Source: a virus
Direction: 5' to 3' (one strand)
Virus record (IMG/VR): IMGVR_UViG_3300020020_000147
Coordinates: 1-26,239 of that record
Length of the DNA stretch: 26,239 nucleotides
Part shown: positions 3,591-26,210 of the stretch, piece after piece
Layout of the letters: the number at the start of each line of letters is the position of its first letter
How positions within the stretch are numbered: position 1 is the stretch's first letter
The notes under the pieces: model-generated
Databases searched by the model: none
Told to the model about the DNA's origin: nothing
Seen by the model: the letters and a program-made list of their open reading frames with translations, nothing else
Translations under genes and position numbers: made by a program

Positions 3591-4286
3591 TTATGCCCGC
3601 CGCCGGACGTGCGCGACCAGCACGGCGTCGTATGTCTTGCGCACGAGGTCGGCGTCGTAGCGCAGACCGCGTTGCGCACACAGCGTCTTGAAGTGCTCGC
3701 CGGCCGTGCTGACGGTCAGGTCCTGGTCGACCGTCCTGGCGAGCTCGAGCGCCTCCCGCATCACCACGCAGGCCGTCGCGAACGTCGGCGCGTTTTCTCG
3801 TCTCGCGAACGCGAGCCGGCGGGCACCGCCGGTGCTTGTACGCTTTTGATCTTTGGGTACTGGTTTCATGGATTCATGGATACCGCGCGCGCGCGAGTCC
3901 GCGAAGTGTCCACGCTGGACAGGTTTTCCTTTCGCCCCCCCGCGCGCCTGCGCTTTCCGCTGCCGGTCGAGTTCCCGCTTCTCCTTGACGGTGGAGGCTT
4001 TCGGGTTCCACTGGTGGTAGTCGTGAATCTGGTAGCCGCCCTTGACCTTTCGCCAGAGGCGAATCGTGCGGTTTGCTAAAACTTTTGCGATCGATCCGCT
4101 CTTTGAAACCACACCACAAGACGACACAAACGCATCCGGAATGAACCCGTCGGTGAGATGTTGCCGCGCGTAGGTGATACCCAGGAGGTAGAGATGCAGC
4201 GCCTGCGAGGCGCCACCCGGGCCGAGCAGCGCGCCGGCTTTCAGAATTTTTGGATGCGTCGGCAGGCGGTCGTCGAGGTAAAGCAT
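3591..4286 (-). CDS. Replication organizer-like protein (DnaD-type N-terminal domain)
   Basis: A 231-residue protein. The N-terminal 95 residues follow the plan of phage replisome organizer N-terminal winged helices. The elements are LDDRLPTHPKIL, a helix ALHLYLLGITYARQHLTDGFIPDA, a second helix around 64-72 (GSIAKVLAN), and RLWRKVKGGYQIHDYHQWNP. A basic linker (about 97-135, rich in Lys, Arg and Gln) leads to a C-terminal helical domain. Such proteins bind the origin and load the helicase. Place in the operon, next to a recombinase, nuclease and methyltransferase, agrees. It starts at TAATG, sharing bases with the previous stop. Confidence 0.7.
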   Translation of the reverse strand: MLYLDDRLPTHPKILKAGALLGPGGASQALHLYLLGITYARQHLTDGFIPDAFVSSCGVVSKSGSIAKVLANRTIRLWRKVKGGYQIHDYHQWNPKASTVKEKRELDRQRKAQARGGAKGKPVQRGHFADSRARGIHESMKPVPKDQKRTSTGGARRLAFARRENAPTFATACVVMREALELARTVDQDLTVSTAGEHFKTLCAQRGLRYDADLVRKTYDAVLVAHVRRRA

Positions 4287-4447
4287 TAATTCTCCGTAAG
4301 GTCGTCCTCAGGCAGAAACTGCGACAGCCACTCGACGAGTTCTCGATCTTCCGGTTCTTGGTCGTCGTGACTCTCCAGCCAGACGATCAGCGCGGCGAGC
4401 TGATCAGGTCTGGGGCATCGATCAAGCGGGCTATCTGGTTTCGCCAT
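4286..4447 (-). CDS. Small acidic hypothetical protein
   Basis: A 53-residue protein starting at ATG 4447 (MAKPDSPLDRCPRP), seven bases after the stop of the nuclease-like gene. A longer in-frame extension to 4543 would overlap that gene and reads like its shadow, so the shorter start is preferred. The protein is rich in Asp and Glu, with one probable helix pair (DQLAALIVWLESH and DRELVEWLSQFL). No family is recognised. Its TAA overlaps the ATG of the replication organizer gene, so co-translation is likely. Confidence 0.6.
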   Translation of the reverse strand: MAKPDSPLDRCPRPDQLAALIVWLESHDDQEPEDRELVEWLSQFLPEDDLTEN

Positions 4448-4454
4448 TTCAAGA

Positions 4455-4865
4455 TCACCAGTGAATCTCGCCGACGTCGAGCGGGGCGACGATGGCGTCC
4501 ACCTGAGAAGGCTTGTATGGACAGTCAGCCCACCACGCCGCAAACCGCGCTTGGTACTCAGGTACTGAAATCACGTGTTCGGGTTGGCTGAACTGTGACC
4601 AGCCAATCTGCCCGTCGCGGCGCTTCACCACAATCCACACCGTGAAATGCTTTGGAATCGCGACGAGATCCTTCAACACGCGATACTGCGATGGATCGAT
4701 CTTTTCGCCTTCCTGCTTGAACTCTTGAAACAGAAAGCGATGCGTTCTGACATCGTGGGTCACGGCATCCACATCGGTGAACGAGCTCCCGCGGTGTCCG
4801 ATCCCCCCGAGAATCGTGTCGAAATAATTCGAGATGCCGCACTTGCACTTTCGGAGCTGGGTCAT
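4455..4865 (-). CDS. PD-(D/E)XK-like nuclease family protein
   Basis: A 136-residue protein with the spacing of a small PD-(D/E)XK nuclease. Asp31 and Asp33 (SFTDVDAVTH) are followed by a strand ending in Glu48-Phe-Lys50 (FLFQEFK), with a Gln/Glu-containing helix after it. A second strand is HFTVWIVVKR. A CKCG start may bind metal. The family includes phage-coded resolvases and exonucleases; the exact substrate here cannot be read. It lies between the Dam methyltransferase (4-base overlap) and the replication genes, which suits a recombination or replication role. Confidence 0.6.
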   Translation of the reverse strand: MTQLRKCKCGISNYFDTILGGIGHRGSSFTDVDAVTHDVRTHRFLFQEFKQEGEKIDPSQYRVLKDLVAIPKHFTVWIVVKRRDGQIGWSQFSQPEHVISVPEYQARFAAWWADCPYKPSQVDAIVAPLDVGEIHW

Positions 4866-11191: not shown

Positions 11192-11240
11192 TTGCGGGGG
11201 CGGGATTTGAACCCGCGACCTTTGGGTTATGAGCCCAACG
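11192..11240 (-). other. attP core: 3' half of a tRNA-Met (CAT) gene
   Basis: On the minus strand this is the 3' half of a tRNA. It has an anticodon stem-loop TTGGG-CTCATAA-CCCAA with anticodon CAT, a variable loop, a T-arm GCGGG-TTCAAAT-CCCGC and an acceptor strand CCCCGCA plus discriminator A, without encoded CCA. The 5' half (acceptor, D-arm) is absent, so it is not a working gene. It matches the usual phage strategy of carrying the 3' part of the target tRNA as attachment core so that integration restores the gene. It lies directly beyond the integrase stop codon. Confidence 0.85.
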
Positions 11241-11301
11241 GATCACGCAAAAAGCCCCGCCAATGTGGCACTGGTAGCCTGACTGGTAGCCGCCGACCGT
11301 C
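11241..11301. repeat. attP flank with two direct repeats ACTGGTAGCC
   Basis: The decamer ACTGGTAGCC occurs at 11270-11279 and 11282-11291, twelve bases apart in register, next to the attP core. On the minus strand a GGCGGGGCTTTTT string (11262-11250) looks like the right half of a terminator whose left half is missing. The repeats could be arm-type integrase sites. No gene is seen between 11161 and 11301. Confidence 0.4.
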
Positions 11302-15180: not shown

Positions 15181-17433
15181 TTACGCCAATCCGTAGCGCT
15201 TGACGACGCCGGGAATGCGCGGCACGACCGCCTCCGCGAGTTGCCGGCCGTCGAGGTTGATGACGGCGGTCCCGCCGCCGCTCGTGTTCGGCGCCGACTG
15301 CGCCACCGCGTCGCCGGAGAGATTCGGCAGCGCCAGCGACCGCAGCGCCAACGCGACCCGATCGATCTGCCCGTTGACGACGTCACCCCAGGCGCGCCAC
15401 TGGTCCTCGTTGGCGCGCAGGAGCGGCTCGAGCGCCTTCATGGCGCGCTCGGCTTCAGACGCCGTCTCGATGGTGGCGCGGGCCTGCTCCTCCGTCGCGC
15501 CGGTGACGTCCTCGCTGGCTTCTTTGTGCTTGCGCAGCGCCTCCTCGACTTCGGCGATGTTGGCGGCGGCCTGCTCGGGGTTGCCCTTGTCGGTGCCCTG
15601 CGTCAGCTTGATCCACAGCCGCGCGCCTTCCTCGCCGAGCGCCTCGAGCTGCTGCTGCAGCGCATCGAAGCCGCCCATCGACTCGGCGAAGTCGACGACC
15701 GCATCCCGGCCCTTGTTGCGGTCGAACATCCCGAACAGCGCCCGGCCGATCTGGATGGCCGCCTGCGCCGCGGCGACGATGGTGCCGATCCCCGACGTGA
15801 TGCTGGTGAACCCGCCCAGGATCGACGTCAGGCCCCCGCCGCTGGTCATCTTCTCGAAGCCGCCTTTCATGTCGCCGATGGCGCCATGAACCTTGGAGAA
15901 GGCCGACACGGTCGCGCCGAGCTGTCCGAGCAAGTTGTTGCCCAGGAGGCCGCCCAGATTCGACACCGCGACGCCGAGCTTGTCGAATTCCTGCGTGACG
16001 GTCGGCAGCTTCGCGAGGTTCTGAAAGAACGCTTTCGCATCGGCGGCGTTCTCGTTCAGCGCATCGCCGAACGCATCGCCGGCTATTTTTAATTTCCGGC
16101 CCGCTTCATCCGCGCCGATGCCGATCTCCTTCCAGCCCCGCGTAATATCCGGGAGCTGGTCAGCGGCTGACCGATTCAGCTGCACGAACCGTTGAATGCC
16201 TTGGCCGATCGCCGCGAAATGTTTGGCATTGTCCGCGTCGAGCTTCGCGAGCCGGTCCCCGAACTGCCGCATGCTGGCAAAAATCTTGTCGTCGGCGGCC
16301 TTCTGCTGGTCGGCCGCGGCCTGCGCTTTCCGCGCGGCGGCCTCGCGCTCTTTCGCCAGCCGCTCGAGTTCCTCGGCGCCGGCCGTGACCCCCGTCGCGG
16401 GGAGGTGGACATCCTTCCCCGGCCCGCCCGTCCGCGGCGCCCCGGCGCCGAGCGCGGCGCGTTCGACGATCGCCGCGCTGCCGCGGAACTTCAGCACGTT
16501 GGCGATCATCTCGCCCGTGATCACGGTGACCCGCGTCGCGAGATTCTCCCAGGCTTGCTTCGCGTCCGCCAGGCGCCGGATGGTGTCGTCGGCCATGATC
16601 TGCGCGGCGTCGCCCGTCTTGCTCAGGCCGGCCGAGATCGCCGCCCCGAGCGCGCCGCCCGCCTTGCCGAGCAGCTCGATTTCCAGGCGGGCCCGCATGG
16701 CGGGGTTTTCGATCTTCTGCAGCGCGTCGGTGATGGCGATAAAGGCCTGTTCCGGGGACATCTGCCGCACCGCGTCGAGGGAGAGCCCCAGGTCGGTGAG
16801 CGCGTGCGCGGTGGCTTTGCTGCCTTCCGCCACCTTCTGATTCATCTTGAAGATGGCATTCCCGACGTCGTCGATGGATGCGCCGGACTGCTCGGCCGCG
16901 TAGGTGAAACGCTGGACGGCGCCGGTCGAAATGCCGAGTTTCTCGGAGAGGTCGGTGACCTTCTCGGCGGCATCGAAGACAGACGCGACGAAGCCCATGA
17001 CGGCGTCGACGGAAAACGCGATGCCGACCGCGCCGGCCAGCGAGAGCAGGCCGCCCTTGATATCGGCGAATCCGAGGGAGGTCTTCTTGGTTTCCTGATT
17101 GACCTGGCGCGTCGCCTTCTCCAGGTCCTGCATTTCCTTCGGCGCCACCTGGCCGAGCGCCTTGTACTTCTCGATGGCCTCGGCGAGCTTGGCGTTGACC
17201 GACGCCTGCTCTTTCGCGGTCAAGGCGGTGGCGCCGCCGATTTCCTGAATCGCCTTGGTCATAATCTCCGCGTCCTGCACGAGCTTCCGCCCGCTGAACG
17301 CATTGGCGACCTTGTCGACCTTCTGCGCGACCGCTTCGGCGTTGGACTGGAAATCTTTGAGCTTGACCGTGGATTGCTGGACGGCGTCGTAGAACGACTT
17401 GAAGTCGGCGACGAATGTAGCGGTGATAGGCAT
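15181..17433 (-). CDS. Tail tape measure protein
   Basis: A 750-residue protein in the canonical place between the frameshifting chaperones and the tail-tip genes. It has long coiled-coil stretches (about 1-120 and 340-430). A hydrophobic segment at about 131-156 (LLSLAGAVGIAFSVDAVMGFVASVF) precedes a TMP-like region (about 160-260: KLGISTGAVQRFTYAAEQSG, ALTDLGLSLDAVRQMSPEQAFIAITDALQKI). A second Gly-rich hydrophobic region lies around 530-590, with an acidic coiled segment after it. It sets tail length; at about 0.15 nm per residue, near 110 nm. Its ATG overlaps the stop of the -1 frame of the chaperone (TGATG at 17435-17431). Confidence 0.92.
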   Translation of the reverse strand: MPITATFVADFKSFYDAVQQSTVKLKDFQSNAEAVAQKVDKVANAFSGRKLVQDAEIMTKAIQEIGGATALTAKEQASVNAKLAEAIEKYKALGQVAPKEMQDLEKATRQVNQETKKTSLGFADIKGGLLSLAGAVGIAFSVDAVMGFVASVFDAAEKVTDLSEKLGISTGAVQRFTYAAEQSGASIDDVGNAIFKMNQKVAEGSKATAHALTDLGLSLDAVRQMSPEQAFIAITDALQKIENPAMRARLEIELLGKAGGALGAAISAGLSKTGDAAQIMADDTIRRLADAKQAWENLATRVTVITGEMIANVLKFRGSAAIVERAALGAGAPRTGGPGKDVHLPATGVTAGAEELERLAKEREAAARKAQAAADQQKAADDKIFASMRQFGDRLAKLDADNAKHFAAIGQGIQRFVQLNRSAADQLPDITRGWKEIGIGADEAGRKLKIAGDAFGDALNENAADAKAFFQNLAKLPTVTQEFDKLGVAVSNLGGLLGNNLLGQLGATVSAFSKVHGAIGDMKGGFEKMTSGGGLTSILGGFTSITSGIGTIVAAAQAAIQIGRALFGMFDRNKGRDAVVDFAESMGGFDALQQQLEALGEEGARLWIKLTQGTDKGNPEQAAANIAEVEEALRKHKEASEDVTGATEEQARATIETASEAERAMKALEPLLRANEDQWRAWGDVVNGQIDRVALALRSLALPNLSGDAVAQSAPNTSGGGTAVINLDGRQLAEAVVPRIPGVVKRYGLA

Positions 17434-18218: not shown

Positions 18219-18942
18219 TTACCGCGGCGCCGCGGGTGGCGGCGGCTCGGGGCCGCGCTCGTCGCGCCGCTCGCGGCCGCGCGCCGTGGTCACGCCCGCG
18301 GGCTCGCGCGTCCAGTCGCCCGCCCCGACAAACGACGAGCTGATCGACACGGCCCCGGTCGCCGTGACGTTGATCGACGCGTCGAGATACGCCGGCCCGA
18401 TCCAGAAATAGGTGGGCTCCAGCGACGACGGCATCAGCTTCAGCGTCGCCGCCGTATCGCCCGCGGCGACGTCGAAGAGGTCCATCTCGGTGTTCTCGTA
18501 CCAGCCACTGAGCTGGCCCTGGATATTCGGGAGCCCCTGCACCCACTGTTTGAACGTGTCTCCGACCCTTTGTTACGAGCCTGCAACGAACCCAGACTCG
18601 GGCCGATCATTTCTGTCGGCCTCTCACGGTTCCTGCTTTCCGTGAGTGCGGACTATCGCATCACCCGGCCGTCGGCCGGGGCTTCTGGGCTTAGTCTCTC
18701 AGGCTGCACGGCTTGCGCCTGCTTGCCCCCTGTTTGCATCGCAGCATCCAAGTCGATCACCAGAAGTGTTTGCTCGACGCTTACGCGCCGAGAGCCCCCG
18801 TCGTTGAGGCGGTCACGTCCACCCGGTCGCGGTTCATTTCCAGCGACCAGGAATTCATCGATGCGATCACGACCGGCGTGCCCGGGTCGGCGCCGGTCGG
18901 GTCGATCAGAATTTGCCCTTTAGAACCGTGAATTCTTGCCAT
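18219..18942 (-). CDS. Major tail tube protein, split by a group I intron
   Basis: Exon 1 runs from ATG 18942 to 18807 and exon 2 from 18565 to TAA at 18219. Joined, they give 483 bases and 160 residues without a stop. The protein opens MARIHGSKGQILIDP, has NSWSLEMNRDRVDVTA-FGDTFKQWVQGLPNIQGQLSGWY across the junction, then LKLMPSSLEPTYFWIGPAYLDASINV and SISSSFVGAGDWTREP; this is the usual pattern of siphovirus tail tube subunits. The split falls inside the well-conserved DVTAFGDT. The C-terminus has an Arg/Pro-rich tail. Without splicing, translation would end after 53 residues (TAA at 18783-18781). The tube polymerises around the tape measure. Confidence 0.88.
18566..18806 (-). ncRNA. Group I self-splicing intron (about 241 nt, no ORF)
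   Basis: Read on the minus strand, the element shows a group I fold. P1 pairs exon GCCU and the first intron C with GGGGC, giving the U-G pair at the splice site. P2 is CGGCGC-guaa-GCGTCG. P3 is CTTCTGG with CCAGAAG (7 bp). A GGC-GCAA-GCC hairpin forms P5/P6. P7 is GACTA (after GAGA) with TAGTC (in GCGATAGTCC), and P8 is CCCGGCC-gac-GGCCGGG. P9 is CTCACGG with CCGTGAG, followed by two more hairpins (GGCCGA/TCGGCC and GAGTCTG/CAGGCTC). The 5' exon ends in T and the intron ends in G, as group I chemistry requires. It has no homing endonuclease. Confidence 0.92.
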
Positions 18943-19803: not shown

Positions 19804-20153
19804 GGCCGCTCCGCGACGCTGAGCACCAGCTCGCGCCCGGCTTCGTCGGGGTCGCGCAGCGCGGCGACCTGAAACGTCCGCGTCCGGCCGCTGCGCGGGT
19901 CGACGTAGGTGACGCGCGTCTCGATGGTGACGCCCGGGTGATACGGCAGCGTGATCTCGTGGGTCGCCGTCGCCAGCACCGTGCCCGCGAACGCCCGCTC
20001 CTGGTCGCGCGCCGACACCGGCACGATCGCGGCGAACGCGTCCGGCGGATCCAGCGGCGTATACCCGTCGACGAATCCGCCATCGGCGTCGGCGACGGGC
20101 GTCCCCGGCGCATCGAGCGTCACGCGCTTGTCGCGCAGGCCGGCGGGCATCAT
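19800..20153 (-). CDS. Head-tail joining protein (head closure, SPP1 gp16-like)
   Basis: A 117-residue beta-barrel protein of the head-tail adaptor type. It has MPAGLRDKRVTLDAPG, a central insertion (GGFVDGYTPLDPPDAFAAIVPVSARDQERAF), strands THEITLPYHPGVTIETRVTYVD and RTFQVAALRDPDEAGRELVLSVAE. It would seal the connector after packaging. Its ATG overlaps the upstream stop (ATGA). Order after a gp6-like connector and before the gp10-like protein is canonical. Confidence 0.8.
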   Translation of the reverse strand: MMPAGLRDKRVTLDAPGTPVADADGGFVDGYTPLDPPDAFAAIVPVSARDQERAFAGTVLATATHEITLPYHPGVTIETRVTYVDPRSGRTRTFQVAALRDPDEAGRELVLSVAERP

Positions 20154-20506
20154 GCCAGCACCGGATCGCCAAAGCGGCGCAAGAGGCCGGCCACGCCCGG
20201 CGCAAAGTCGGTCCCGGAGTCCCGCGCCGGGGACAGCGCGAGCGTCGCCGGGTCATCGCCGCGGAAGCGCCACAACTCGCCGAGCTGCAGCAGCACCGCC
20301 GCGCGCAGGTCGGCCGGCGCATCCAGGTCGGTCACCCACTGCGCCACCAGCGCCGCCCCGGCCGGCGACCGCTCGACGTAGCGCACGATCGCCGCCTCGG
20401 CCGCGTCGAGCTTCTCCTGGACGTCCGGATCGTCGGGATGCCCGGGCGGCGTCGCAATCCGCAGGTGCATCTTGGCGGCGGCGAGCGTCACGAACTGCGC
20501 CGCCAT
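20150..20506 (-). CDS. gp6-like head-tail connector protein
   Basis: A 118-residue mainly helical protein: FVTLAAAKMHLRI, then PDVQEKLDAAEAAIVRYVERS, a helix DLRAAVLLQLGELWRFRGD, and a C-terminal GVAGLLRRFGDPVLA. This is the HK97 gp6/phage_gp6 pattern, a ring that attaches to the portal. The final 'LLRRFGDPVLA' is typical of the family. It overlaps both neighbours (TGATG upstream, ATGA downstream). Confidence 0.82.
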   Translation of the reverse strand: MAAQFVTLAAAKMHLRIATPPGHPDDPDVQEKLDAAEAAIVRYVERSPAGAALVAQWVTDLDAPADLRAAVLLQLGELWRFRGDDPATLALSPARDSGTDFAPGVAGLLRRFGDPVLA

Positions 20507-20934
20507 CAGCCCTTCCCCTGCTTGACCTGCAGCACCCAGCCACTGCCCCCGCCCGGCCGCATGTTGGTCGTCGCGGTGCAGGACCAGAGCGCGCCCGCGT
20601 GGGTCACCTGGTCGCCGGCCGTGTAGGTGCGCGCCGTGTCATAGACGCCGCAGTACCGCGGCAGCGTCAGCCGCACCGTGCCCCACGGCGTCACCGTGTC
20701 GCCCGCCTTGACCCCGAACGTAATCAGCCGCTCGTCCTCGCCGTCCTGCGTGACCGTCAGCGCGTCGGCCGTCACCCCGGGGGCGCCGTCCTGGCCGTCG
20801 GCCCCGGCCGGTCCTGGCGGCCCGGGCACGGGCGGACGGGCCTCCAGCGCGGCGAGCCGCTCGAGCACCGGTGACAGCGCCGCCTTCATCGCCAGCAGGA
20901 CCGTATCGGCGAGCCGTTCGGAGAGGTCAGCCAT
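20506..20934 (-). CDS. Collagen-like protein with carbohydrate-binding-like C-terminus
   Basis: A 142-residue protein placed between portal and connector. Residues 1-32 form an amphipathic helix, and residues 37-53 are collagen-like G-x-y repeats (GPPGPAGADGQDGAPG). Residues 54-90 are beta-rich, and residues about 93-138 resemble a small chitin-binding type CBM5/12 fold (YCGVYDTARTYTAGDQVTHAGALWSC...GWVLQVKQG). Such modular proteins serve as head or neck fibres or decorations that stick to host surface sugars; this is inferred. It overlaps the portal gene by eight bases and the connector by TGATG. Confidence 0.72.
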   Translation of the reverse strand: MADLSERLADTVLLAMKAALSPVLERLAALEARPPVPGPPGPAGADGQDGAPGVTADALTVTQDGEDERLITFGVKAGDTVTPWGTVRLTLPRYCGVYDTARTYTAGDQVTHAGALWSCTATTNMRPGGGSGWVLQVKQGKG

Positions 20935-22303
20935 ACAGCAATCCCGCGGTCAACCGTTTCGTGAACTGCGCCAGGTCGACGTCGTCGTCCTCGTCCTCGG
21001 GCGGCGCGGCCGGGGCCGGCGGCGCCGGCTTGCTGAAGGGCGCATCGGCGTCGCGTTCGGCGAGCGCCCGCAGCGAAAACATCTGCTGCTGCATGTAGGG
21101 CGTATCGCCGCCCGTCACGGCCCCGATGCCGAAGTACTTGGCGCGCGCCTCATCCGGTGAGAGCACGCCGCCGGCGACGCCCTGCTGCGCCGCATCCGTC
21201 CGCGCCTTCGCGTCCATCCAAATGAGATCGTCGATGTCCAGCTCGGTGCCGAGCGTGCGATCGGGGACGGTGGTCAAGCCGAGCCCCTCGTCGAGCGAGT
21301 TCTCCAGCGCGACGATGAGCGCCTGCAAGCATTGCGAGAAGTATTGCTGCGTGAGCGGCTCGTTGTTCGCGTAGGGCACCGGCTGGCTGTTCACCAGCGA
21401 GACCGGCACGTGGTAGCAGGCGCACACGGTCTCCACCGTCCACTGCAGCTGCTCGACCAGCTGCGCATCGACGGCATTGACTGACATCGCCTCGTACTTC
21501 AGCCCGTCGCCGAGCACCGCCACCTTACCGACGTTCGCCCCGCTATAGGCGGTGTCCCAGTACAGCTTCAGCCGCTGCGCGGTCTCGTCGGTGATGCTGC
21601 CGGGCGCCGTCAGCACGCCGCCGGGATTGCTGCCGCTGGCGAAGAACGTCGACGAGTTGTCCTGAATGTTGAGGCCCTGCAGCGCCGCCAGGCCGCAGGC
21701 ATAAATCGGCGACACGCCGATCAGCGGATGGAACAGCGGCACCATCAGGTCATGGATGACTTCACTGGCCGGCACCGCGACCGCCGTGCCCTCGGGCGTG
21801 ATGCCGGCCAGCTCGCTCGCCCCGAGCTGGTAGTAGACCGCGCCGTCAGGGGCGACGAGCGGCTTCACCGACTGCGGGTCGAGCACATACAGCGCCACCA
21901 CCACGCCGCGCTGGTCCCGCTGCTTGAGCACGTAGGTGTTGCCGTGCGTCAACTTCGAGACCAGCCACTGCTCGAGAAACTTGTTGATGATTTGGTAGCG
22001 GTTCGGTTTGCGCAGCACCGGCGAAAAGGCGGGGCTGGCGGTCTCCCGCCAGATCCCCGCGCTGTCCTGCTCGACGAGCCGCAGCCGGAGTTTGCCGATA
22101 TCCGACGCGATCAGCGTCGTGCAGGCAAACACGGCCGGCGAACCCAGCACCGACGGCACCGAGCACTCGTCGTTCCGCTGCCAGGCGCCGAGGTACGGCT
22201 CGCGGACAATCGGCCACCAGCCGCCGCGCGGGCTGACCGCGGTCGCGCCCGCCGGCGTCGCCCGCGCCCGCGCCCGCGTCAGCTCGAACCCAAACAGCTT
22301 CAC
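20927..22303 (-). CDS. Portal protein (HK97 family)
   Basis: A 458-residue portal beginning at GTG 22303, overlapping the capsid stop (GTGA). The longer frame to 22378 is shadow. Landmarks are VFACTTLIASDIGKLRLRLVE, RYQIINKFLEQWLVSKLTHGNTYVLKQRD, VIHDLMVPLFHPLIGVSPIYACGLAALQGL, NPGGVLTAPGSI and VETVCACYHVPVSLVN. The stem and clip helices (FSQCLQALIVALENSLDEGL) are followed by an acidic tail. The protein forms the dodecameric DNA channel. It follows the protease-capsid gene, whereas in most HK97-like phages the portal comes first. Confidence 0.93.
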   Translation of the reverse strand: MKLFGFELTRARARATPAGATAVSPRGGWWPIVREPYLGAWQRNDECSVPSVLGSPAVFACTTLIASDIGKLRLRLVEQDSAGIWRETASPAFSPVLRKPNRYQIINKFLEQWLVSKLTHGNTYVLKQRDQRGVVVALYVLDPQSVKPLVAPDGAVYYQLGASELAGITPEGTAVAVPASEVIHDLMVPLFHPLIGVSPIYACGLAALQGLNIQDNSSTFFASGSNPGGVLTAPGSITDETAQRLKLYWDTAYSGANVGKVAVLGDGLKYEAMSVNAVDAQLVEQLQWTVETVCACYHVPVSLVNSQPVPYANNEPLTQQYFSQCLQALIVALENSLDEGLGLTTVPDRTLGTELDIDDLIWMDAKARTDAAQQGVAGGVLSPDEARAKYFGIGAVTGGDTPYMQQQMFSLRALAERDADAPFSKPAPPAPAAPPEDEDDDVDLAQFTKRLTAGLLYG

Positions 22304-24189
22304 CGATCCTGGTCCTTGCGGCCGTTGCGCCCCGTCGGGGGGTCGGTCGTGAACACCTCGCCGGTCGGCGACGGCCACGCGGTGGCGGTGAGGTACTTCA
22401 CCGAATTGACGCCGATGCGCTTCCAGTTGATGAACCGCTCGGCGCGCAGCCCGACGTTGTTGGTCTGCCAGAGCGAGACGTAGACGGTGGTCGCATCGGC
22501 CGGCGAGGCCGGCGCGCTGTCCATCTGCAGCGACGCTTCGCGCGACGCGTCGATGGTCACGCCACCGTCGTCGGCGAAGAGGATGTACTCCGGCTGCAGG
22601 GCGATGACGTTGGTCGTCAGCGTGTTGCTGGTGATGAACGTGAGCCCGCGATAGCTGCCGCCCGAGATGCCGATGCCCGGGAACTGCGGCGAGCCGTCGA
22701 GGTTCGACCGGAACGACAGCGCCAGCGCATTCGCGGGCGACATCAGGAACACCAGGCCATCCACCGGGATGTTGTTCGCGGCGAAATGGTTGATGAGCCC
22801 CATGATGTCGGCGAGCGGATTGGTGGTCGCGGCGGCCGTCGCCGCGCCGTTGGTGATCGACGCGGGATTGACGCCCGCCACCGCCGCCACCGCCGGGTTG
22901 ACGAACTGCCCGTCGAGGAACTGCGCGATCCCCTTGATCATGTCGTTGCGCGCGAGTGCCTCGGCCGACGGATTCGACAGCCGCACCAGCTCCTCGGTCA
23001 GCACGATGATCCCGGCGACCTTGGTGATGTCGAGGGTCTCGCTGCTGAACGCGAGCGAGGTCACCGGCTTCGGCTTGCTCTCACCGACCCACCCGTAGGT
23101 CCCACCCGCGGTCTGGCTGGGGACCTTGCAGTTGAACGGCACCTGGCGCAGCCCGGGGATGCGGCCGATGATGGTCGCCGGCCGCAGCAGCTCGAGGAAG
23201 TCATCGGCGATGACGCGGTTGACGAGCGGCGCCGCCCAGGTCGCATCGGTCGTGGTGCCGGGCGCCACGGCGGCCTTGAGCGCCAGCGCGACTTCGGGCG
23301 TCGAATCGTTCCACCGCTGCGCGTACTGCGCCGCCTCGAATTTGTTGCCGTGGCACACCATCTGCGCGCAGGCCAGGCGCACAAACGCGGTGCCCTTGGG
23401 GACGTTGGCCTTCACCTGCACGACCGGCGTGCGCGGGTTCGGCGTCGTCGGCACGGGCTTGGCGCTGTCGGCGTTGAGCGCGTCGAGTTCCCGCAAGCGC
23501 GTGATGTGTGCGTCGATTGACTTCACCCGCGCGGCGGATTCGTCGTACGCCTTGGTCTGCTCCGGCGTCAGCGTGACGTTCTCGTTACCGGCGGTGGTCA
23601 TCAGGTCGGTCATGCTGGCGACGGCCGCAGCGCGGCTGGTCTCGTGGGCGGTGATTTGTTCGGAATAGGTCTGCATCGGGAGTCTCGTCGGAATGCTCGC
23701 GACGCCGAGCGGGGGGAAGGCCAGGCCAGACGCGGCCGATTTGATGTTCGTGATCGTGGCCTCGACGTTCATCGGAATCGTCACGGCCGAGAGTTCCGCC
23801 CACTGCCACCGCTTGATGTGATTGCCGCGCTTGAGCGGCACCATCTCCAGCGGCTGAAACCCGATCGACAGCCCGCGCACCAGCCGCGCCTTCACGCTCT
23901 GCCACGCCTCGTCGAGCCGGTCGCGCAGCGCGCCGGGTTCCTCGACTTTGGCGAAGCGGGCCTTAATGCGAATGCCGGTCGGGGTGACCTGCGCATCGAT
24001 GACTTCGCCGACGGGCTGCGCCTGGTTGTGTTGCCAGAGCAGCGGAATGGGCAGCGTGAACAGCGCCCCGCCGCAGTCGACGATATCGCCGCCGCGGTCG
24101 GTACAGGGCGTCGTGGCGACGCCGTCGATTTCGCGGAGGTCGCCGTCGAACGATTTGACTTCGAGGGTCGCGTAAGCGCGGTCGAGCAT
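22300..24189 (-). CDS. Prohead protease fused to HK97-type major capsid protein
   Basis: One 629-residue reading frame holds two proteins that are usually separate. Residues 1-150 are an S78/U35 prohead protease, with the catalytic His54 (LLWQHNQAQPVGEV) and Ser108 (VRGLSIGFQP). After a linker, residues 172-260 form a coiled scaffolding-like delta domain beginning MQTYSEQITAHETSR. Residues about 260-610 are the capsid fold (ELLRPATIIGRIPGLRQVPF, GWVGESKPKPVTSLAFSSETLDITKVAGIIVLTEELVRLS, VFLMSPANALAL). The protease presumably cuts itself and the delta domain off during maturation. The ATG lies within a 9-bp hairpin. Met172 (23676) could be an internal start but lacks a ribosome-binding site. 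Confidence 0.9.
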   Translation of the reverse strand: MLDRAYATLEVKSFDGDLREIDGVATTPCTDRGGDIVDCGGALFTLPIPLLWQHNQAQPVGEVIDAQVTPTGIRIKARFAKVEEPGALRDRLDEAWQSVKARLVRGLSIGFQPLEMVPLKRGNHIKRWQWAELSAVTIPMNVEATITNIKSAASGLAFPPLGVASIPTRLPMQTYSEQITAHETSRAAAVASMTDLMTTAGNENVTLTPEQTKAYDESAARVKSIDAHITRLRELDALNADSAKPVPTTPNPRTPVVQVKANVPKGTAFVRLACAQMVCHGNKFEAAQYAQRWNDSTPEVALALKAAVAPGTTTDATWAAPLVNRVIADDFLELLRPATIIGRIPGLRQVPFNCKVPSQTAGGTYGWVGESKPKPVTSLAFSSETLDITKVAGIIVLTEELVRLSNPSAEALARNDMIKGIAQFLDGQFVNPAVAAVAGVNPASITNGAATAAATTNPLADIMGLINHFAANNIPVDGLVFLMSPANALALSFRSNLDGSPQFPGIGISGGSYRGLTFITSNTLTTNVIALQPEYILFADDGGVTIDASREASLQMDSAPASPADATTVYVSLWQTNNVGLRAERFINWKRIGVNSVKYLTATAWPSPTGEVFTTDPPTGRNGRKDQDR

Positions 24190-24210: not shown

Positions 24211-24393
24211 TCAGCTCGAGGGCGCGGGCGATTTGAAAACTTTTAATTGCTGCCGGATGATGGCGGGCAGGGATTGGCGCAGGGCGAGCGCGCGCCGGGC
24301 CAGCGCGTCGAATTCCTTCGAGGGCAGGCGAATCGTCAACGAGACCGACGGGTCCGCGGCGTCGAGCGGCGGGCGGCCCCGCGGCTTTTTCAC
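24211..24393 (-). CDS. Ribbon-helix-helix type small protein
   Basis: A 60-residue protein beginning with GTG that overlaps the terminase stop (GTGA). After a basic, AT-hook-like start (KKPRGRPPL) comes a ribbon-helix-helix pattern: a strand VSLTIRLP, helix SKEFDALARRALALRQ and helix SLPAIIRQQLKVF. RHH proteins bind DNA as dimers. Between the terminase and capsid genes it may regulate late expression or packaging; no target is known. The stop lies 21 bases before the capsid start, within reach of the start-codon hairpin. Confidence 0.7.
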   Translation of the reverse strand: MKKPRGRPPLDAADPSVSLTIRLPSKEFDALARRALALRQSLPAIIRQQLKVFKSPAPSS

Positions 24394-26210
24394 GGCGACG
24401 CCCCCAGCACCAGCATCTGGAACTGCTTCGACGGGCCGGCGCTCCGCAGCGCCCCACTCAGCGCCGAGAGCAGCGCATCGATCGCGTCGATTTTGTTCGG
24501 CGATTCCGGCCCCTCTTTTTTCGGCAGGATGGAATCATTCGTCCGCCGCTCGACCACGACGTTGGACGCTTGCCAGCGGAGACACGCGTTGCCGTCATGC
24601 CGGAAGCGCCCATGCCGAATCCGGGTTTCGAGTTCGCGCGCCGGCGCCGTGGTCGTGTTCGCGTTCTTCGGTTCGACGCGTGCCGGAAATCCGTCGTTGA
24701 ACAGATTGCCCACCAACTGCCCCGACCCAAACTGGTCGAACACGATGTCCTGCACCCGGAACTGCGCACACCACGCGCGGACGTCCCGCTCAATCCGGCT
24801 GTAATCAATCATCGACCCGTCGGTGAGGATCAGCAGCCCGGCCTCAGCCCAGAGCCGGTACTCCGGCACGGCCCGCGCCCGCGCCTGCACCACGCCCTCC
24901 GGCAGATAGCAGCGGACAAACCCGTAGAACACGTCGTCACGCTTGAACACCGCCGCGACCGCGGCGAGGTCGTCGAGCTGCGCCAGGTCGCCGCCAATCC
25001 AGCAGGACTCCCCGGCGAAGTCGCCCAGGCGCAGCGACGGATCCGCGCACGCGTCCCACTCGGCCATCGACAGCCAGGCCGACGCCGCATTCGACCACTC
25101 GCTGCAGCACTTGACGCGAAACTCTCCATCGAGCCCGGGCGTCTGCTGCGCGTCACTGCAATACCGCCGCATATAGTCCAGCGTCGGCGTCACCCCGAGC
25201 ATCGGGTTCGCCTTGATCCACACGCGCTCGTCGCGCCAGTCGTCGCCCTCGTCGATGGTGTAAATCGCGCCGAGCAGATGGTCCGCGACAAACACCCCCT
25301 CGAGCACCTTGCAGAGCGTCGACCGCAGCGCGTAGCCGATCGAGAGCTGGTTGTACCCGGCCGTGGTGGGACAGAGCAGCAGCGGATTGGCCCGCGCGCC
25401 CTGACTGCTCTTGAGCACGTCGTGCAGCTCGAACGTTTGCGCATGCGACTCGTCGAGCACGATGCACGACGGGTTCAGCCCGTCCTGGGTCGATGCTTTC
25501 GCGTTGATCGGTTTGATGGTGCCGTCGACCGTGGTGATGCTATTGGCGTACGCCTGCACGCCCTGGCCCTTGAGCCACGACGACGCAAACACCATGCGCT
25601 GGGCAATCCCGAACACGATCCGCGCTTGCGACCCCGTCGTTGCCCCACACACCACCGACGGACCGGGCTCGTTTTCTCGGAGCAGATGGAACAACACGAT
25701 CGCCGCCATCAGCGTGCTTTTGGCGCCCTTGCGCCCCAGCTCGAGATACAGCGTGGTAAACCGGCGGCGCGCCAGGTCGCCGCGCACGCGCCAGCCAAAC
25801 AGCAGCATGACCACAAACACCTGCCACGGTTCGAGCCGAATCGTCGCGGTCGACCAGCGGCCCTCGACATGCGGCAGTCGTTCGATGAACGCGCAGGCGT
25901 CACGCCCGTGGGTCGGACTCCACACGTACGGCCAGCGGCGATCCCGCGCGAGATCCGCCGCTTGGCGCGCGCACGCGAGCTGCACCCACTTGCACGCGAC
26001 AATGCGCCCGGCCGTGACACCCGCCGCGTACCGGCGCGCAATGCTCGCGTAATCGCGCCGCGACACCGGAACGTCCACGACCGCAGCCGGCGCCGATGCC
26101 GGCGGCTTCGGCGCGCGACCCGGACGCAAGGTTCCGCGCCGCTGCTTCTCGGCCTCAGGCAGCGCCGGCCGCCCGCGTTTCGGTCGGGTCAGCGACGCCG
26201 TACTGGTCAT
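24390..26210 (-). CDS. terL: Terminase large subunit
   Basis: A 606-residue packaging motor. The ATPase has a Walker A variant LGRKGAKST (158-166), adjacent to LYLELG, and Walker B CIVLDES (249-255), followed by a coupling region (LLLCPTTAGYNQ). The nuclease has acidic residues in GGDLAQLDDLAAV, in DIVFDQFGSG and in the closing NKIDAIDALLSAL. Residues 10-40 (KRGRPALPEAEKQRRGTLRPGRAPKPP...) are an unusual basic extension, reminiscent of the N-terminus of P27-type small terminases. The ATG at 26210 has no ribosome-binding site in the 29 bases visible to the window edge. The protein cuts and pumps phage DNA into the prohead through the portal. Confidence 0.95.
   Translation of the reverse strand: MTSTASLTRPKRGRPALPEAEKQRRGTLRPGRAPKPPASAPAAVVDVPVSRRDYASIARRYAAGVTAGRIVACKWVQLACARQAADLARDRRWPYVWSPTHGRDACAFIERLPHVEGRWSTATIRLEPWQVFVVMLLFGWRVRGDLARRRFTTLYLELGRKGAKSTLMAAIVLFHLLRENEPGPSVVCGATTGSQARIVFGIAQRMVFASSWLKGQGVQAYANSITTVDGTIKPINAKASTQDGLNPSCIVLDESHAQTFELHDVLKSSQGARANPLLLCPTTAGYNQLSIGYALRSTLCKVLEGVFVADHLLGAIYTIDEGDDWRDERVWIKANPMLGVTPTLDYMRRYCSDAQQTPGLDGEFRVKCCSEWSNAASAWLSMAEWDACADPSLRLGDFAGESCWIGGDLAQLDDLAAVAAVFKRDDVFYGFVRCYLPEGVVQARARAVPEYRLWAEAGLLILTDGSMIDYSRIERDVRAWCAQFRVQDIVFDQFGSGQLVGNLFNDGFPARVEPKNANTTTAPARELETRIRHGRFRHDGNACLRWQASNVVVERRTNDSILPKKEGPESPNKIDAIDALLSALSGALRSAGPSKQFQMLVLGASP

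What the first reader, a model, noticed from the sequence alone, without database searches (positions are those of the whole stretch)
18566..18806. Compact group I intron in the major tail tube gene
The tail tube gene is broken into two parts that each look intact, separated by 241 nt. Splicing after the T at 18807 and before the T at 18565 restores DVTAFGDTFK exactly and in frame. The insert shows a nearly complete group I core by eye: P1 with the U-G pair, P2, P3 (7 bp), P7 (GACTA/TAGTC), P8 (7 bp), P9 and two further hairpins, with terminal G. It has no endonuclease gene. Introns in tail tube genes of high-GC temperate phages are, to my knowledge, rare.
Basis: partly seen in the sequence, partly recalled or inferred. 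Interest (0 to 1): 0.9.

Follow-up and report, generated by a model that had tools for sequence, protein, structure and literature searches.

The report
Self-splicing intron in phage tail gene
A phage gene for the tail tube is interrupted by a 241-base RNA segment that almost certainly cuts itself out (a group I intron), and it belongs to a large, phage-rich intron family that the standard RNA database fails to recognise.

Summary
On the minus strand a major tail protein gene is split by 241 nt (18806-18566). Thirteen IMG/VR relatives carry the same gene uninterrupted through the junction. The joined protein hits a PHROG major tail family; neither half does.

The insert is very probably a group I intron. 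P1 with U.G at the splice site, P10, P2-P9.2 and a terminal G are all present. That test is unsound: the insert belongs to a large phage family that RF00028 misses while ringing on every classic phage intron I checked.

I found relatives at more than 100 viral places and aligned 50 cores. All group I core helices (P3-P8, including the bulged guanosine-site helix P7) show strong compensatory changes. A model built without the window finds the insert as its only hit in the window (E about 1e-17).

The 'rare' claim needs trimming. Spliced introns in capsid and tail genes of high-GC phages are published, and this family mostly sits in major head genes. The more interesting result is the family: invisible to Rfam, up to three copies per locus, one member only 172 nt. 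Splicing itself is inferred.

The parts
18807..18942 (-). Exon 1 of the major tail protein gene (45 codons + 1 nt), ATG at 18942, Shine-Dalgarno-like GAGGAG just upstream
   Evidence: Translation; uninterrupted homologues; joined protein hits phrog_1407 major tail protein E 4e-8 while exon 1 alone hits nothing
18566..18806 (-). 241-nt group I intron, terminal (omega) G at 18566, no endonuclease gene
   Evidence: Absent from 13 relatives; independent covariance model hit to its core E 1.4e-17
18219..18565 (-). Exon 2 of the major tail protein gene (2 nt + 114 codons + stop)
   Evidence: Translation; homologues. Read backwards in this frame the intron holds TAA four codons before GGA; first start codon is GTG at 18542
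18794..18810 (-). P1: exon GCCU (18810-18807) pairs with intron GGGC (18797-18794), U.G at the 5' splice site
   Evidence: Read from sequence; ranked 2nd of 98 frame-compatible T|..G| junctions for P1+P10 pairing
18798..18800 (-). P10 strand: intron CGG (18800-18798) pairs with exon 2 UCG (18565-18563), so the internal guide CGGGGGC spans the ligated junction GCCU|UCG
   Evidence: Read from sequence; the same arrangement in L008, L009, L038
18773..18792 (-). P2 hairpin, 8 bp, GUAA loop
   Evidence: Present in the minimum-energy fold
18760..18766 (-). P3 5' strand CUUCUGG
   Evidence: 7 of 7 pairs with compensatory changes, 97.7% of cells paired
18753..18759 (-). J3/4 UGAUCGA, conserved 7-nt joining strand
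   Evidence: Alignment of 50 cores
18749..18752 (-). P4 5' strand CUUG
   Evidence: U.G, U-A and G-C at the second pair across the family
18735..18746 (-). P5 hairpin
   Evidence: Compensatory changes at 4 of 5 consensus pairs in the family; only 3 bp in the window
18729..18732 (-). P4 3' strand CAGG
18701..18728 (-). P6 (GGGC/GCCU) and P6a (GCAGGC-GCAA-GCC(G)UGC)
   Evidence: P6 pairs swap G-C and C-G in 22 and 6 of 50 sequences
18692..18698 (-). P7 5' strand G(A)GACUA with bulged A: guanosine-binding site
   Evidence: Pair beyond the bulge is A-U, G-C, C-G or U-A with no exception in 50; inner pair A-U, G-C, C-G or U-A
18682..18688 (-). P3 3' strand CCAGAAG
18664..18680 (-). P8 hairpin, 7 bp in the window
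   Evidence: 4 of 4 consensus pairs with compensatory changes
18650..18655 (-). P7 3' strand UAGUCC
18623..18646 (-). P9 hairpin, 7 bp
   Evidence: Single-sequence fold only
18601..18621 (-). P9.1 hairpin with CAGAAAUGA internal motif, 6 bp
   Evidence: Single-sequence fold; same motif by eye in L038, L082, L098
18576..18600 (-). P9.2 hairpin, 8 bp
   Evidence: Single-sequence fold only
18566..18575 (-). 3' tail UAACAAAGGG; UAACA also precedes the 3' splice site in L008, L009, L038

Best explanation
The insert is a compact, ORF-less group I intron. In the transcript the internal guide (CGGGGGC) pairs with the end of exon 1 (GCCU, U.G at the cut). A guanosine held in the bulged P7 helix attacks after U18807. 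The freed exon then attacks after the terminal G18566 while P10 holds exon 2 (UCG), giving a ligated mRNA for the full major tail protein. Shown here: exact interruption of a conserved gene, uninterrupted relatives, a complete core with covariation across a family, and guide pairing at both splice sites. Inferred from group I biochemistry: the two transesterifications and their efficiency. Also inferred: arrival by horizontal transfer into a previously uninterrupted gene, by recombination, an endonuclease supplied in trans, or reverse splicing.
For: Junction restored exactly and matched by uninterrupted homologues. Joined protein hits the major tail family, halves do not. 50-sequence core alignment: 96.6% of cells paired against 77.2% in shuffles and about 40% when slid; 24 of 36 pairs with changes on both sides; covariation score 0.549 against 0.184. 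P7 has the group I bulge with four pair types beyond it. A model without the window hits only the insert, E 1.4e-17. R1's only sub-threshold hits in seven phage genomes with known introns fall on the RF00028 hits in Twort and LittleE. RF00028 weakly hits one family member, L136, at the right place (E 0.078). Guide pairing ranks 1st or 2nd of 57-127 junction candidates in four introns.
Against: No Rfam group I hit to the insert even at E<=5. No RNA data exist for this uncultured phage. In the pairing-only ranking one other junction (-14/-2) scores slightly higher for the window, though it would not restore the conserved protein. P4 is only 4 bp and J3/4 7 nt, against 6 bp and 3 nt in the RF00028 consensus. 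P2, P9, P9.1 and P9.2 rest on single-sequence folding.
Confidence: 0.95

Rival explanations
1. The intron has decayed: it has group I ancestry but no longer splices, and the tail gene is a pseudogene or the phage is defective.
For: No splicing data. P5 is short in the window (3 bp) and the window scores lowest of the nine members compared (88.6 bits).
Against: Every core pair in the window is a standard pair once P5 and P8 are read in the window's own register. Exons show no stop or frameshift on either side, and 20 of the 40 differing exon-2 codons (against L002) are synonymous. The neighbouring terminase, head, portal and tape-measure genes give full-length family hits.
Confidence: 0.03
2. 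Two separate polypeptides, or ribosomal bypassing of the insert, make a functional tail protein without splicing.
For: Exon 2 has an in-frame GTG at 18542.
Against: Starting there drops GDTFKQW, which is conserved in relatives; the frame is closed by TAA inside the intron. The insert's fold is a covarying ribozyme core found in unrelated genes, which neither model explains.
Confidence: 0.01
3. The insert is an assembly chimera or a chance insertion without function.
For: Single metagenomic contig; no second copy at this site found.
Against: Chance excluded by the independent model hit; the exact, frame-restoring junction with guide pairing is not expected from a chimera.
Confidence: 0.01

Closest known systems
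Group I introns of Mycobacterium phages BAKA (minor tail gene, 265 bp) and LittleE (capsid gene), Pope et al. 2013, PMC3706429
   Same: ORF-less compact intron (BAKA), virion structural genes of temperate phages of a high-GC host, U at the exon end, G at the intron end; splicing shown by RT-PCR
   Different: RF00028 finds both weakly (28.6 and 30.7 bits); the family model R1 gives 25.9 bits on LittleE and nothing on BAKA. Different tail gene.
RF00028-type phage group I introns: T4, Twort, S-PM2, Tuc2009, SPO1
   Same: Same core P3-P8 topology, bulged P7, P1 U.G, terminal G
   Different: All ring with RF00028, five of their introns above the cut-off; none is a member by R1 apart from a 22.9-bit cross-hit in Twort. 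The window family has a 7-nt J3/4 UGAUYGA and a 4-bp P4.
Unannotated members of the same family in named records: Rhodanobacter plasmid NZ_CP088981, Thioalkalivibrio plasmid pTK9001, Roseobacter phage CRP-118 (ribonucleotide reductase), phage ctn9Y15 (P22-like coat gene)
   Same: Same core at 95-122 bits with R1; same P1/P10 logic where checked; no Rfam hit
   Different: Other host genes; lengths 172 nt (CRP-118), 267 and 293 nt

Membership tests
Group I intron | Interrupts a gene whose uninterrupted form exists, with an exact frame-restoring junction | tested here: met
   13 uninterrupted relatives
Group I intron | Core helices P3, P4, P6, P7, P8 supported by covariation | tested here: met
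   the window pairs accordingly
Group I intron | P7 with bulged nucleotide (guanosine site) | tested here: met
   Columns 100-106 with 150-155, no unpaired cell in 50 sequences
Group I intron | P1 with U.G at the 5' splice site and P10 to exon 2 | tested here: met
   Read in the window, L008, L009, L038; junction ranking (2nd of 98 in the window)
Group I intron | Terminal guanosine of the intron | tested here: met
   G18566
Group I intron | Guanosine-initiated self-splicing | not testable with these tools
   Needs an RNA experiment
Rfam RF00028 Intron_gpI | Score at or above 50 bits | tested here: not met
   No hit in the window at gathering score, nor for the insert at E<=5. The curated model does not cover this family, so this is no argument against group I chemistry
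One of the 14 named group I subtypes (GISSD) | Match to a subtype-specific covariance model | not testable with these tools
   Models not available; J7/3 of only 3 nt leaves no room for a P7.1/P7.2 insertion between P7 and P3
Mobile intron with homing endonuclease | Endonuclease ORF inside the intron | tested here: not met
   241 nt filled by structure; no room for a gene. Some relatives have an endonuclease-like ORF just downstream of the core

The most novel reading that the evidence does not exclude
The intron represents a group I subgroup not yet named: a phage-concentrated lineage with a conserved 7-nt J3/4 (UGAUYGA), a 4-bp P4 and a minimal 3' domain (down to 172 nt in all), which prefers virion structural genes, often several copies per capsid gene, and which standard annotation misses.
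Probability: 0.4. Interest if true: 0.75.

Novelty: new member of a known kind. Interest (0 to 1): 0.52.

Why it matters
As a single case it is an ordinary mechanism in an unusual gene. Its value is that it exposes a large group I family in phages that Rfam does not detect, so many 'split' capsid, tail and ribonucleotide reductase genes in viral metagenomes are probably spliced genes mis-called as fragments. Merk et al. 2025 (PMC12350094) describe phage group I introns as preferring nucleotide-synthesis and DNA-metabolism genes; the bias seen here towards head genes runs against that and may partly reflect what annotation pipelines could see. Members near 172-200 nt would be useful minimal ribozymes for structural work.

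Tried and rejected
Rfam at the gathering score, and on the insert at E<=5: no group I hit; not taken as refutation after testing RF00028 on known phage introns and on the family. blastn of the insert against GenBank phages: nothing; against plasmids: two real relatives in ribonucleotide reductase genes (L008, L009) and two short hits not followed beyond a negative Rfam check of one. The first core pattern gave 51 viral hits of which only one was real; the second was nearly all real. Xanthomonas phage phiL7 and Klebsiella phage Roth32 introns were tested as possible members: not members by R1, classic by RF00028. Checked whether the family was already described in the open-access papers searched: nothing found; the CRP-118 genome paper (PMC11092137) does not mention an intron. 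Assembly artefact, split protein and bypassing rejected as above.

Full report
What is there. On the minus strand the major tail protein gene starts at 18942 and ends at 18219, and is interrupted by 241 nt at 18806-18566. Removing exactly these bases gives VDVTA-F-GDTFK. Six IMG/VR relatives align to the joined DNA with no gap at the junction. A search with exon 2 alone brought seven more contigs, all reading uninterrupted through DVT(A/C)F(G/Q)D or a close variant. None of these contigs contains the intron core. The joined protein hits PHROG major tail families (4e-8) over residues 1-140; neither half does. The gene lies in a normal head-to-tail cluster: terminase at 24390-26210, a protease/major head protein at 22300-24189, portal at 20927-22378, adaptor at 20150-20506, tape measure at 15181-17433.

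What the insert is. Rfam's group I model gives no hit in the window at its gathering score, or for the insert at E<=5. blastn against plasmids, however, found two similar inserts inside ribonucleotide reductase genes. They sit at the same codon in a Rhodanobacter and a Thioalkalivibrio plasmid, in NP|CGEQPL. 121 places carried the upstream core motif as well; five did not, one of which (L096) is a genuine member. In about 85 thousand bacterial and archaeal genomes a nearly identical pattern matched only 11 contigs, of which 6 hold strong members. The family is therefore concentrated in phages.

Structure. Fifty diverse cores were aligned (A1) and the group I core was written as a structure including the P3/P7 pseudoknot. 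96.6% of cells pair, against 77.2% in shuffles and about 40% when slid. 24 of 36 pairs show changes on both sides, and the covariation score is 0.549 against 0.184. P3 covaries at 7 of 7 pairs and P8 at 4 of 4. P6 swaps G-C with C-G. The P7 pair beyond the bulge occurs as A-U, G-C, C-G and U-A without exception, and the last P7 pair likewise. The variable positions of P3, P5, P6, P7 and P8 were left open in the search patterns, so selection did not create this. A model built from 44 members, excluding the window and the first relatives found, hits the window once, at 18768-18648, E = 1.4e-17.

Splice sites. Exon 1 GCCU pairs with intron GGGC with U.G at the cut, and exon 2 UCG pairs with the adjoining CGG, so one guide CGGGGGC covers the ligated junction. 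The same arrangement is readable in L008, L009, L038 and CRP-118. Among all frame-compatible junctions within 60 nt the proposed one ranks second of 98 for the window, first in L008 and L009, and second in L038 by pairing alone. The higher-ranking alternative in the window would not restore the conserved protein; the one in L038 would add 11 residues from the intron end. The intron ends in G.

Is it really group I when Rfam says no? RF00028 rings on all seven phage genomes with known group I introns that I tested (T4, Twort, SPO1, S-PM2, Tuc2009, LittleE, BAKA), and on none of four family records. R1 does the reverse, and its only weak hits among the classic phages lie on the RF00028 introns of LittleE and Twort. 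RF00028 reaches one family member (L136, E 0.078) at the right place. This mutual weak recognition, the topology and the bulged P7 place the family within group I. Nawrocki et al. 2018 (PMC6125680) already reported that RF00028 had no significant hits in archaea where subtype models found introns. Absence from Rfam therefore does not by itself mean a new subgroup. The subtype models were not available to me.

Where the family lives. Flanking exon fragments of 62-69 members were scanned. Major head proteins dominate (phrog_1357 in 18 of 62 upstream and 15 of 69 downstream fragments; phrog_283 in 8 and 9), followed by ribonucleotide reductase, tape measure, portal and terminase. No other member of this sample was identified in a major tail gene. 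Several contigs carry two or three members within about 2 kb. The CRP-118 member is 172 nt long.

What is inferred. Splicing has not been seen for any member of this family. The chemistry is taken from group I introns in general. How the intron arrived is unknown: it carries no endonuclease.

Assessment. Its rarity claim is weakened by Pope et al. 2013 (PMC3706429) and by the family census, and 'temperate' is unsupported. As a single element it is a new member of a known kind. The family it reveals is the part worth following.

Noticed in passing
L067 822-939, 1359-1474, 2175-2294 (+); L141, L147, L139, L087, L123 and others: Single IMG/VR loci carry two or three introns of this family within 1-2 kb, mostly in major head protein genes; capsid genes appear riddled with Rfam-invisible group I introns.
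   Followed up: partly
L193 (Roseobacter phage CRP-118, OR420741) about 2489-2660: Ribonucleotide reductase annotated as two genes is probably one gene with a 172-nt group I intron (NP|CSEIILRPYQFCNLTE), among the shortest I know of; the genome paper does not mention it.
   Followed up: partly
L194 (phage ctn9Y15, MW202674) about 2495-2705: P22-like coat gene annotated as two pieces with a small hypothetical gene between them; that 'gene' overlies the intron core (122 bits).
   Followed up: partly
L008 and L009 plasmids, about 1958-2225 and 1951-2244: Ribonucleotide reductase genes of two plasmids carry family introns; the PLSDB table lists no gene there.
   Followed up: yes
L038 3787-3907 with 4050-4278 (-); L096 4119-4238 with 4442-4667 (-): An RF00028-type group I intron lies about 150-250 nt upstream of a family member near the same capsid gene: two intron types side by side.
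   Followed up: no
window 11193-11260 (-): Rfam finds a tRNA (36 bits), anticodon CAT by my reading, that ARAGORN misses.
   Followed up: no
PV062637 81358-81482 (-): Unannotated Nitratidesulfovibrio phage SRB7757 holds a family member (89.8 bits) and three sub-threshold RF00028 hits.
   Followed up: no
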